64,000 nucleotides of DNA. Source: Acidobacteriota bacterium (GTDB taxonomy: Bacteria > Acidobacteriota > Vicinamibacteria > Vicinamibacterales > 2-12-FULL-66-21). Below are positions 18,354 through 23,931 of this stretch, one piece after another. Position 1 is the first letter of the stretch. Every line of letters begins with the position of its first letter. Under the pieces are notes generated by a model, which saw nothing but the letters and a program-made list of their open reading frames with translations, had not been told where the DNA came from and searched no databases. The position numbers and the translations under genes were made by a program. The stretch spans positions 1 to 64,000 of the forward strand of contig JACPDI010000047.1 in the NCBI GenBank assembly GCA_016184105.1, given 5' to 3'.

Positions 18354-20534
18354 ATGAAAAAGGTCGTGGAGAAAACGAAATCGATGTCGATGCCCCGGTG
18401 GGTTCTCGCGCCCGCGCTGGTGCTGTTCGGTGGCGCGTGCGCGTCCGCGCCCGCGTCGAAGGCGCCCGTGTTCACCTTCGAGCAGAAACTGGCGGACATC
18501 GTCCGTCTCGAGGACCAGCGAATCCTCCGCGCGGACCCGCCGCCGGCCCCGGTGGCGACCGGGCGCAAGGCGCGGAACGTGCCGCCCCCGCACGTCCCCG
18601 ACCTCGTACCGCTGCTGGCCGATCCTGACGCGAAGGTGCGGCGCCGCGCCGCGCTCGCCGTGGGACGCGTCGGCGTTGCGGAGGGGGTGCCGCCGCTCCT
18701 GCCGCTCCTCAAAGACCCGGATCCCGACGTTCGGCAGATGGCGGCGTTCGCGCTCGGCCTGATCGGCGAGGCGCCGGCGGCGGCACCGCTGCAGGCGCTG
18801 CTCTCGGACACGTCGATGATCGTGCGCGGCCGCGCGGCCGAAGCGCTCGGCCTGATCGGCAGCCGCGCGGCGGCCGCGCCGATCGCGGCGATGGTGCGGG
18901 AGGCGGCGGCCCAGGGGAATGTCGGCGCGGTGCCAGCAGACACCGAGGAATGGCCCGCTGACGCGCCGCTCGAGGCGTTCCGCCTCGGGGTGTACGCCCT
19001 GGTCCGGCTCAAGGCGTACGAGCCGCTGGCATCCGCGGTGATTGGACCCGACGGGCAGCCGGTCACCAGGTGGTGGCCGGTGGCGTTCGCGCTGGCGCGC
19101 ATTGAAGACGCGCGCGCGGTGCCCGCGCTGACCGCGCTCGCCTCCGGCGAGGGGCGCTACACGCGCGCGTTTGCCGCGCGAGGCCTGGGCGCCGCGAAGG
19201 CCCCGGCGGCGGTCGCGGCGCTGGCCGGGCTCGCCGATCCGGCGCGGCTCGACCCGCTCGTTGCCGTGTCCGCCGTGCGGGCGCTGGCGCAGGTCGGCGG
19301 CGATCGCGCGCTGTCCGCCGTGCTCGCCCTGGTGACCGCGCCACAACTCGATCCCAACGTCCGGCTGGAAGCTGTCGCGGCGCTGGTGTCGCTGGCCTCG
19401 CCAGCCGCGCCGCTGGCGAATCTCGCGCCGCAGGCCGCCGATGCGCTGATGGATCGGGTGGCCGACCCGTGGCCCGCCATGCGCGGACAGGCGCTTCGCG
19501 CGCTGGCGCAGATCGATCCCGATCAGTTCCTGTTCGCGCTCTCCGGCCTCGACCCGGATCCGCACTGGAGCGTGCGCGCCGCGCTGGCCGGCGCGCTCTC
19601 GACGCTGTCCCCCGACGTCGCGGTCCCACGGCTCGAGGCGATGCTCGCAGACGCCGACCGGCGCGTGATCCCGCCGGTCCTCTCCGGCCTGGTGCGCGTC
19701 AGAGCCCCGGACGTGGAAGCGATCCTGCGGAAACACCTGACCGATTCCGACGTCGTGATCCGCATGACGGCGGCACGGGAGCTGGGCGAGCTCAAGCCGG
19801 CCGATGGCCCGCAGCTCTTCGCCGATGCCTACCGGATGTGGTCAGGCGACGCCACGTATCTGGCGCGCGCGGCGGCGCTCACGGCGCTGGCCAGGTACGG
19901 CGCGGCGGCGAACGAGACGCTCAGCGCCGCGCTCAGCGACAGGGAATGGGCCGTCCGCGTCAGGGCGCTCGATCTCCTCGAGGAGATTGACCCCGAGGCG
20001 GCGCGCACCGCTGCGACCACGATCCGGCCTGCCCCGGGACAGCCCCTGGTCGCGTACGACGCGCCCGAGGTGGTCGCGCCCCGCTTCTCGCCGCATCTCT
20101 ACCTCGAGACCACCAAGGGCCTGATTGAAATCGAACTCGCCGTCGGCGAGGCGCCGCTGACGGCGCACACCATCATGGCGCTCGCGCGCAAGGGGTTCCT
20201 GACGAACATCCCCTTCCACCGTGTCGTTCCGAATTTCGTCGTCCAGGTGGGGGACCCGCGCGGTGACGGCGAGGGGGGACCGAACTTCACGATCCGCGAC
20301 GAGATCAACCAACTGCCGTACGTGCGCGGCGCGGTCGGCATGGCGCTCGACTGGCGCGACACGGGGGGGAGCCAGTTCTTCATCACGCACTCGCCACAGC
20401 CGCACCTCGACGCGCGCTACACGATTTTCGGCCGCGTGGTCAAAGGCATGGAGGTGGTCGATCGGCTGCAGCAGTGGGACGTGATCGAGCGGGCGCGGGT
20501 GTGGGACGGGGTGACCTTGACGCGTGCAAGGTAA
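18354..20534 (+). CDS. HEAT-repeat lipoprotein fused to a cyclophilin-type peptidyl-prolyl isomerase
   Basis: 726 aa. A signal peptide ends in LFGGACASAP, an imperfect lipobox with Cys near residue 29. Residues about 75-560 are tandem HEAT/PBS-lyase repeats (LLADPDAKVRRRAALAVGRVG and similar, at least ten). Residues about 575-726 are a cyclophilin with PFHRVVPNFVVQVGDPRGDG, RGAVGMALDWRDTGGSQFFIT and ARYTIFGRVVKGMEVVD, covering the Arg and Gln-Phe-Phe active-site positions. It probably acts in the periplasm on protein folding or docking (inference). ATG at 18354 overlaps a TACAAT box; ATG at 18384 gives a more ordinary n-region and may be the true start. It follows the menC-like gene by 16 nt. 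Confidence 0.85.
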   Translation: MKKVVEKTKSMSMPRWVLAPALVLFGGACASAPASKAPVFTFEQKLADIVRLEDQRILRADPPPAPVATGRKARNVPPPHVPDLVPLLADPDAKVRRRAALAVGRVGVAEGVPPLLPLLKDPDPDVRQMAAFALGLIGEAPAAAPLQALLSDTSMIVRGRAAEALGLIGSRAAAAPIAAMVREAAAQGNVGAVPADTEEWPADAPLEAFRLGVYALVRLKAYEPLASAVIGPDGQPVTRWWPVAFALARIEDARAVPALTALASGEGRYTRAFAARGLGAAKAPAAVAALAGLADPARLDPLVAVSAVRALAQVGGDRALSAVLALVTAPQLDPNVRLEAVAALVSLASPAAPLANLAPQAADALMDRVADPWPAMRGQALRALAQIDPDQFLFALSGLDPDPHWSVRAALAGALSTLSPDVAVPRLEAMLADADRRVIPPVLSGLVRVRAPDVEAILRKHLTDSDVVIRMTAARELGELKPADGPQLFADAYRMWSGDATYLARAAALTALARYGAAANETLSAALSDREWAVRVRALDLLEEIDPEAARTAATTIRPAPGQPLVAYDAPEVVAPRFSPHLYLETTKGLIEIELAVGEAPLTAHTIMALARKGFLTNIPFHRVVPNFVVQVGDPRGDGEGGPNFTIRDEINQLPYVRGAVGMALDWRDTGGSQFFITHSPQPHLDARYTIFGRVVKGMEVVDRLQQWDVIERARVWDGVTLTRAR

Positions 20535-20579: not shown

Positions 20580-20609
20580 AAAAAAAGGGGGCTGCTTTCG
20601 GCCCCCTTT
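20580..20609 (-). terminator. Rho-independent terminator of the 20-aa peptide gene
   Basis: A 9-bp stem AAAGGGGGC (20584-20592)/GCCCCCTTT (20601-20609) with an 8-nt loop. On the minus strand it is followed by TTTTTTTATT, an intrinsic terminator 22 nt after the small ORF stop. It may also help terminate the convergent HEAT-cyclophilin gene. Confidence 0.85.
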
Positions 20610-20631
20610 CCCTAGTGGCTAGGGCAGAAGC

Positions 20632-20694
20632 TTACCGCTTCTTGCCACCCTTCTTCTTGGCGCCACCTTTCTTCGCGCCGCCTTTCTTCGCCAT
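20632..20694 (-). CDS. tiny Lys/Gly-rich basic peptide (20 aa)
   Basis: ATG at 20694 to TAA, encoding MAKKGGAKKGGAKKKGGKKR: ten Lys, six Gly, net charge about +11. It is preceded by GGGGGGAA, 6 nt from the ATG, and followed by a strong intrinsic terminator (20580-20609). No family is recognised. The size and basicity resemble small ribosome-associated or nucleic-acid-binding peptides such as Thx, but there is no sequence match that I can name. A near copy (17 aa) lies 194 bp upstream in the same orientation. The shared MAKK start and GGKKR end, together with the independent signals, argue that it is a real gene rather than chance. Confidence 0.65.
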   Translation of the reverse strand: MAKKGGAKKGGAKKKGGKKR

Positions 20695-20802
20695 GTGTGT
20701 TCCCCCCTTTCGTCCGGGCGTTCGTGAGAGCTTCAACCGCGCGATTGCCTGCTGCCTACCGGCACGCCAGGGAACCCGTGCGGCGCCCTCAGCTTCGTTG
20801 CA

Positions 20803-20825
20803 CTTCCGGGCGTCATGCCCGGAAG
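20803..20825. other. perfect 9-bp hairpin between the two tiny genes
   Basis: CTTCCGGGC (20803-20811) and GCCCGGAAG (20817-20825) flank a 5-nt loop. It lies downstream of the 17-aa gene terminator and upstream of the 20-aa gene, so it would be in the 5' leader of the latter. Role unknown. No T-run adjoins it. Confidence 0.5.
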
Positions 20826-20835
20826 ATCCTGCTGC

Positions 20836-20873
20836 AAAAAACTTCGGGGGTGTCAGGCTCGCCTAACACCCCC
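20836..20873 (-). terminator. Rho-independent terminator of the 17-aa peptide gene
   Basis: GGGGGTGT (20846-20853) pairs with ACACCCCC (20866-20873), with an inner AGGC/GCCT stem after one mismatch. On the minus strand GAAGTTTTTT follows immediately. It lies 14 nt past the stop of the 17-aa ORF. Confidence 0.85.
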
Positions 20874-20887
20874 GGGACCGGCGACGG

Positions 20888-20941
20888 CTATCTCTTTTTG
20901 CCGCCCTTTTTCTTGCCGCCCTTTGCAGTCTTCTTCGCCAT
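20888..20941 (-). CDS. tiny Lys/Gly-rich basic peptide (17 aa)
   Basis: ATG at 20941 to TAG, encoding MAKKTAKGGKKKGGKKR. It has a consensus AGGAGG Shine-Dalgarno 5-6 nt before the ATG, a near-consensus sigma-70 promoter 96 nt upstream (21037-21064) and an intrinsic terminator directly downstream. This is a complete monocistronic unit. The peptide is a paralogue of the 20-aa one. The leader of about 90 nt can form a CAGGTGG/CCACCTG hairpin (about 21001-21024). No annotated family is known to me. Strong expression signals suggest an abundant product that binds RNA, DNA or ribosomes (inference from charge only). Confidence 0.72.
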   Translation of the reverse strand: MAKKTAKGGKKKGGKKR

Positions 20942-21036
20942 TCTTCCTCCTCAGGAATTTGGCAGCTCAGCGTTCTATCCGGTTCCGAGTGGTCGCTACA
21001 GGTGGGCTGAGCAAGCCACCTGCATACCAGATGTAG

Positions 21037-21064
21037 ATTATGGATGAGAAAAATTCGGTGTCAA
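21037..21064 (-). promoter_or_regulatory. sigma-70 promoter of the 17-aa peptide gene
   Basis: On the minus strand TTGACA (21064-21059), a 16-bp spacer and CATAAT (21042-21037). This is the closest match to consensus at both boxes in the window. Transcription would start near 21030. Confidence 0.8.

Positions 21065-21149: not shown

Positions 21150-23931
<2,782 letters not shown>

What the first reader, a model, noticed from the sequence alone, without database searches (positions are those of the whole stretch)
20580..21064. Two tandem monocistronic genes for tiny Lys/Gly-rich peptides
Between the HEAT-cyclophilin gene and a TPR gene, two minus-strand ORFs of 20 and 17 codons encode MAKKGGAKKGGAKKKGGKKR and MAKKTAKGGKKKGGKKR. 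Each has a Shine-Dalgarno (AGGAGG for the second) and each is followed by a textbook intrinsic terminator with T-run. The 17-aa gene has a near-consensus promoter (TTGACA-16-CATAAT) and a structured leader of about 90 nt. Paralogy plus duplicated signals makes chance unlikely. Both are too short for standard gene callers. Net charge near +10 suggests binding to rRNA, DNA or other polyanions; this is inference from composition only.
Basis: partly seen in the sequence, partly recalled or inferred. Interest (0 to 1): 0.85.

Follow-up and report, generated by a model that had tools for sequence, protein, structure and literature searches.

The report
Paired tiny lysine-rich peptide genes
An entire order of soil, water and marine Acidobacteria carries, always at the same chromosomal spot, an uncatalogued mini gene cassette that makes one or two very small, highly positively charged peptides from one near-invariant promoter and a folded RNA leader, which suggests an abundant DNA- or RNA-binding peptide that gene finders overlook.

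Summary
Both ORFs, the promoter, the Shine-Dalgarno sites and the terminators are at the stated place. The cassette is conserved across one order of Acidobacteriota (Vicinamibacterales): 133 of 193 class genomes held, all in this order, carry its promoter and leader, normally as a single copy. A promoter-only scan of about 85,000 species genomes found 97 sites; 96 are followed by one or two Lys-rich ORFs, usually 14-27 codons and up to 65, typically MAKK...KKR, and the 97th contig ends too early to tell. The locus keeps its place between ddl/TPR and the HEAT-cyclophilin gene.

The leader holds a pseudoknot supported by covariation.

No Pfam, NCBIfam or Rfam family claims it. The best reading is a highly expressed, disordered polycation, like a miniature histone H1 tail, that binds nucleic acid under leader-RNA control. 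Binding, abundance and target are inferred, not shown. In one genus the same promoter and leader were copied in front of ftsZ, so the leader is a portable regulatory module.

The parts
21037..21064 (-). sigma-70-type promoter TTGACA-16-CATAAT (-35 at 21064-21059, -10 at 21042-21037), near-invariant in the order together with the flanking TTTGTGC...TTCTCATCCATAATCTACATCT
20942..21032 (-). transcribed leader of ORF1, about 90 nt (start site inferred from the -10 box)
20999..21022 (-). pseudoknot helix 1: 21022-21016 pairs with 21005-20999 (CAGGUGG/CCACCUG)
   Evidence: covariation
20965..21012 (-). pseudoknot helix 2: loop 21012-21006 (GCUCAGC) pairs with 20971-20965 (GCUGAGC), just 5' of the SD
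   Evidence: covariation
20946..20951 (-). Shine-Dalgarno AGGAGG of ORF1
20888..20941 (-). ORF1, MAKKTAKGGKKKGGKKR, 17 aa, net charge +9
20839..20874 (-). terminator 1 (GGGGGTGT...GACACCCCC, then T-run), between ORF1 and ORF2; possible leaky attenuator
20752..20766 (-). conserved hairpin motif CGTGCC-N-GGCAG in the ORF2 leader, about 50 nt before its SD
   Evidence: 43 of 79 regions, 0.55 expected
20701..20710 (-). extended G-rich Shine-Dalgarno of ORF2 (AAAGGGGGGA; order consensus GAAGGGGGGGAT)
20632..20694 (-). ORF2, MAKKGGAKKGGAKKKGGKKR, 20 aa, net charge +10
20580..20606 (-). terminator 2 (GGGGGC...GCCCCC + T7), probably bidirectional with the convergent HEAT-cyclophilin gene

Best explanation
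The locus is a conserved micro-protein cassette of the order Vicinamibacterales. One strong sigma-70 promoter makes an RNA with a pseudoknotted leader, a first tiny ORF, a terminator, a second tiny ORF and a final terminator. The products are disordered polycations of usually 14-20 residues, with Lys-Lys pairs spaced by Gly, Ala or Thr, in effect free-standing miniature histone H1 tails. I think they are made in large amounts and bind nucleic acid through charge: most likely the chromosome, next most likely ribosomal RNA. The leader pseudoknot sets translation or stability of the message, possibly by feedback from the peptide, and terminator 1 sets the ratio of the two peptides by partial read-through. 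Shown by sequence: the ORFs, their selection as coding sequence, promoter, terminators, leader helices, order-wide conservation, fixed locus. Inferred: high expression, nucleic-acid binding, feedback, read-through.
For: Conservation: 52/60 relatives; 133/193 class genomes, all in this order; 96/97 promoter sites GTDB-wide are followed by a Lys-rich ORF. Selection on the peptide: K about 48% of residues, KKR or KKK end in 113 of 114 distinct ORFs, charge kept at +8 or more while interior residues and length drift; differences are most frequent at codon position 3 without any amino-acid filter (133/233/299 and 422/542/889). ORF1 and ORF2 peptides are identical in 13 of 39 genomes against 0.9 by random pairing, i.e. 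concerted evolution or shared constraint. In one family the single ORF grows to 35-65 aa of KKAA/KKPA repeats, which score best, though below threshold, against H1-like HC2 models. Leader pseudoknot: 55 double-changed cells against 15.8 shuffled, 11 of 14 pairs covarying. Fixed locus with the HEAT-cyclophilin gene in all 41 loci compared. Promoter unique in the genome.
Against: No expression, binding or knockout data. Composition alone cannot tell DNA from rRNA, mRNA, polyphosphate or membrane. Some genera of the order lack the cassette, so it is not universally essential. Codon-position bias from position-wise comparison is only moderate because the repeats shift register. The shuffle control for concerted evolution ignores phylogeny.
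Confidence: 0.5

Rival explanations
1. The peptides are lineage-specific ribosomal or ribosome-associated peptides, in the manner of bTHX or eL41: a short basic tail that fills an rRNA groove, with an autoregulatory pseudoknot leader such as ribosomal protein operons use.
For: Short size, conserved MAKK start and KKR end, pseudoknot leader close to the SD, strong unique promoter. Free N-terminal tails of ribosomal proteins look alike: the one off-order pattern hit was the start of a gene read as rpsK.
Against: Interior sequence and length vary from 14 to 65 aa, unexpected for a fixed rRNA slot; two copies in many genomes, one in others, none in some genera; locus not next to ribosomal genes.
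Confidence: 0.22
2. The RNA is the functional product (a small regulatory RNA or riboswitch-like leader) and the peptides are incidental or only tune the RNA.
For: Leader sequence and structure are very conserved; in part of one family (f11) leader plus a terminator remain without ORF1 (loci L194, L208, L229); the promoter and leader were copied upstream of ftsZ.
Against: A Lys-rich ORF persists at 96 of 97 sites; the ORFs keep frame, composition and ends over large divergence; when ORF1 goes, ORF2 stays. Leader does not match any Rfam family.
Confidence: 0.12
3. Attenuator: ORF1 is a Lys-codon leader peptide sensing lysine or charged tRNA-Lys, and terminator 1 controls transcription of ORF2.
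For: Lys-rich ORF shortly before a terminator; no promoter found upstream of ORF2; U-tract of terminator 1 often set off from the stem (TTTT within 2 nt in 47% against 72% for terminator 2).
Against: There is no lysine or other operon downstream: the next gene is convergent in the loci compared. The only thing controlled would be another Lys-rich peptide. ORF length varies more than attenuation geometry tolerates, and terminator 1 is usually gone when ORF1 is lost.
Confidence: 0.06
4. Cationic secreted peptide or toxin (antimicrobial, or type I toxin-antitoxin).
For: Small cationic peptides with tandem copies.
Against: No signal peptide, no hydrophobic or amphipathic stretch (composition); fixed vertical locus across an order rather than patchy; no antisense antitoxin gene noted.
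Confidence: 0.03

Closest known systems
Bacterial histone H1-like proteins (HC2, Pfam PF07382 / NF038052; Burkholderiales H1-like NF038053)
   Same: Lys/Ala(/Pro) repeats, disordered polycation; the 52- and 65-aa members give their best sub-threshold scores here.
   Different: All scores far below the curated cut-offs (about 20 bits against 40-135); typical members are only 14-20 aa, Gly-rich in the window's family, in tandem, with a dedicated pseudoknot leader.
Ultra-short ribosomal proteins (bTHX, eL41; from general knowledge, not tested)
   Same: Tiny, basic, single-purpose ORFs missed by gene callers.
   Different: No fixed sequence core or length; no ribosomal gene context; no structure known.
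Pseudoknot leaders of ribosomal protein operons (S15, S4, L20 type; general knowledge)
   Same: H-type-like pseudoknot in the 5' UTR close to the SD.
   Different: No sequence match to any Rfam family; regulator unknown.
Leader-peptide attenuators
   Same: Short ORF biased to one amino acid followed by a terminator.
   Different: No downstream biosynthetic operon; a second Lys-rich ORF and second terminator follow instead.

Membership tests
Histone H1-like HC2 / H1-like DNA-binding protein (PF07382, NF038052, NF038053) | Score above the curated family cut-off | tested here: not met
   65-aa and 52-aa members score 14-21.5 bits against cut-offs of 40-135; 20-, 29- and 48-aa members no hit to these families.
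Histone H1-like HC2 / H1-like DNA-binding protein (PF07382, NF038052, NF038053) | Lys/Ala-rich low-complexity polycation | tested here: met
   K 48%, A 26-27%, G 7-9%, R about 5%, no acidic residues.
Histone H1-like HC2 / H1-like DNA-binding protein (PF07382, NF038052, NF038053) | Binds and condenses DNA | not testable with these tools
   Needs biochemistry.
Ultra-short ribosomal protein (bTHX, eL41 type) | Part of the assembled ribosome at a fixed rRNA site | not testable with these tools
   No ribosome structure or proteome of this order is on hand.
Ultra-short ribosomal protein (bTHX, eL41 type) | Conserved length and sequence core | tested here: not met
   lengths 14-65 aa, only the two ends (MAKK, KKR) conserved.
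Known structured RNA / riboswitch family | Match to an Rfam model at gathering threshold | tested here: not met
   none in the window; no credible match at E up to 5.
Leader-peptide attenuator | Co-directional downstream operon related to the amino acid | tested here: not met
   HEAT-cyclophilin gene is convergent with the cassette across the order.
Leader-peptide attenuator | Terminator shortly after a codon-biased short ORF | tested here: met
   terminator 1 in 49 of 53 two-ORF loci.
H-type pseudoknot leader | Hairpin whose loop pairs with downstream sequence, with compensatory change in both helices | tested here: met
   helix 1 71.6% and helix 2 87.1% of cells paired; 5 and 6 of 7 pairs with double changes; 0 of 500 shuffles reach any of the five measures.

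The most novel reading that the evidence does not exclude
A self-contained regulatory circuit in which a tiny polycation, the smallest class of chromosome- or ribosome-binding protein known from bacteria, controls its own production by binding the pseudoknot in its leader RNA, and in which that same promoter and leader have been recruited to couple ftsZ, and so cell division, to the same signal.
Probability: 0.15. Interest if true: 0.9.

Novelty: new variant of a known kind. Interest (0 to 1): 0.72.

Why it matters
Members of an abundant environmental bacterial order appear to devote a strong, near-invariant promoter to peptides too short for any standard annotation. If they coat the chromosome or the ribosome, a main nucleic-acid-binding component of these cells is missing from current gene catalogues. 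The cassette also gives a clean test case for how small a selected protein can be when only charge and ends are conserved, and a new pseudoknot leader whose ligand can be sought.

Tried and rejected
A conserved 9-10 codon upstream ORF in the leader (MRVDRSAHLL-like) looked attractive, but ATG-TAG or early stops in L012, L015, L063, L066 and others and the lack of an SD argue against it; the conserved letters are explained by the pseudoknot. An off-order peptide hit in genome G315 is the start of a gene that I read as rpsK, with the stop out of frame. A search for longer H1-like copies in genomes without the cassette found nothing, but low-complexity queries are weak. Rfam hits below threshold (norovirus 3' UTR and others) are chance. 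Amino-acid-filtered codon statistics are biased towards synonymous change; the unfiltered counts should be used instead. Literature searches for the peptides or for small proteins in this group found nothing relevant. A single-sequence fold of the leader is not unusually stable (z -1.15), so the structure claim rests on covariation only.

Full report
What is in the window. On the minus strand, between a TPR gene (21150-22904) and a convergent HEAT-cyclophilin gene (18354-20534), there is a cassette of about 490 bases: promoter 21064-21037, leader of about 90 nt, ORF1 20888-20941 (MAKKTAKGGKKKGGKKR), terminator 1 at 20874-20845 plus T-run, ORF2 20632-20694 (MAKKGGAKKGGAKKKGGKKR), terminator 2 at about 20606-20580. 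The promoter scores 11 of 12 with 0.0 expected in shuffles and is the only site of its pattern in the genome.

Conservation. A DNA search with the 541-base region matched 52 of 60 relatives from the same family and order, with the best scores over the promoter and leader. Among the 30 loci first fetched, most carry both peptides; in a larger set 69 of 70 loci have the promoter followed by at least one such ORF. A covariance model of promoter, leader and ORF1 start (R1) finds 133 of 193 genomes of the class, 89 of 119 good ones, all within this order, normally one copy each, and one copy in the window's own genome. A strict promoter pattern finds nothing outside the order among about 350 other genomes of the phylum, and an SD-plus-peptide pattern gave one hit there, which is the start of a gene I read as rpsK with the stop out of frame.

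Independent test. The pattern CTTGACA-N9-16-CCNTAATCTACANNNNGYRTG, which contains no part of the peptides, was scanned over 84,980 species genomes: 97 stretches. Of the 97 sites, 96 are followed within 620 bases by one (43) or two (53) Lys-rich ORFs; the remaining contig ends 65 bases after the promoter. That is the strongest single argument that promoter and peptides belong together.

Locus. In all 41 loci compared, the cassette lies next to the HEAT-cyclophilin gene (44-58% identical to the window's in the relatives), usually with ddl, and often with the TPR gene, on the other side. So it is inherited vertically, and no co-directional gene follows it. Sister families of the class, and some genera of family f9, have the HEAT-cyclophilin gene without a cassette there.

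The peptides. 54 distinct ORF1 and 60 distinct ORF2 DNA sequences were compared. Residues are about 48% Lys, 27% Ala, 7-9% Gly, 5% Arg, with no acidic residue; net charge is +8 to +15 in the short forms and up to +30 in the long ones. All but one end in KKR or KKK; nearly all begin MAKK. Interiors swap GG, AA, TA and AT between the Lys pairs, and length varies from 14 to 65 aa. Without any amino-acid filter, differences fall most often at codon position 3 (133/233/299 for ORF1; 422/542/889 for ORF2). In 13 of 39 genomes the two peptides are identical, against 0.9 expected on random pairing, which suggests gene conversion or a shared constraint; phylogeny is not controlled in that test. Family f9 has a single ORF of 35-65 aa. 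Families f6, f11 and part of f12 keep promoter and leader but have lost ORF1 and express only an ORF2-type gene; in f12 a decayed ORF1 (ACG in place of ATG) is still visible.

The leader. Positions from the -35 box to about +20 are near-invariant. A hairpin (GGUGG/CCACC) encloses GCUCAGC, which is complementary to GCUGAGC just upstream of the SD, forming a pseudoknot. On 42 sequences both helices exceed all 500 shuffles in percentage paired; on 84 distinct sequences there are 55 double-changed cells against 15.8 shuffled, and 11 of 14 pairs covary. The second alignment was fitted to helix 2 but not to helix 1. An alternative extension of helix 2 (UGG/CCA) competes with helix 1, so a switch between two folds is possible. 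A plain single-sequence fold is not remarkable. Rfam has no match.

ORF2. Its SD is an unusual run (GAAGGGGGGGAT) that can pair with most of the 16S 3' end using wobble; predicted duplex energy equals that of ORF1's AGGAGG. Its leader has a conserved CGTGCC-N-GGCAG hairpin about 50 nt before the SD in 43 of 79 regions, against 0.55 expected. Promoter scores upstream of ORF2 do not exceed shuffles in 53 loci, while terminators 1 and 2 are found in 49 and 51 of them. I therefore read the cassette as one promoter with a leaky internal terminator; a promoter of another type for ORF2 is not excluded.

A second use of the leader. In four genomes of genus g33 (family f15) a second R1 match lies directly upstream of an ORF that I read as ftsZ, after one that I read as ftsA (names from reading the translations, not from a family search). 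The copied piece includes promoter and whole leader. This shows that promoter and leader work, or at least spread, as a unit independent of the peptides.

Mechanism. Most likely the peptides are abundant free polycations, in effect histone H1 tails without the globular domain, that coat or condense nucleic acid. Charge and ends are conserved while order of residues is not, which is what charge-driven disordered binding predicts. The longest members score best, though well below threshold, with H1-like HC2 models. A ribosome-bound peptide is the main rival, suggested by the small size and the ribosomal-protein-like pseudoknot leader, and weakened by the length range. Expression, binding and regulation are inferences.

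Novelty. Family, leader and cassette are absent from Pfam, NCBIfam and Rfam, and the literature searches run here found no report, within an open-access library only. Order name: inferred from record titles (Vicinamibacterales, Vicinamibacteraceae, Gp6).

Noticed in passing
L108 1095-1183 (genome G044); also L109, L110, L111: A second copy of the same promoter and leader sits directly upstream of an ORF that reads as ftsZ in four genomes of genus g33, family f15.
   Followed up: partly
L052, L053, L060, L071 (family f11): Promoter and leader are kept and followed by a terminator-like hairpin, but ORF1 is absent, so the first unit may be a short non-coding RNA ahead of ORF2.
   Followed up: partly
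L055 and L056 (family f12): Decayed ORF1: an SD followed by ACGGCGAAGAG, i.e. the ATG changed to ACG, with the leader intact.
   Followed up: no
window 20752-20766: Conserved CGTGCC-N-GGCAG hairpin motif about 50 nt upstream of the ORF2 SD (43 of 79 regions, 0.55 expected); role unknown.
   Followed up: partly
L188, L160, L179: Records titled Bifidobacterium breve, Cyanobacteria bacterium and Acidimicrobiia bacterium carry this cassette and match contig lengths of genomes placed in this order: apparently mislabelled bins.
   Followed up: partly
L112 (genome G517): Weak second match to the leader model (E 0.0025) in an N-rich contig; downstream gene not identified.
   Followed up: no
window 18354-20534: HEAT-repeat plus cyclophilin-type fusion protein, conserved as the cassette's neighbour across the order.
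   Followed up: no
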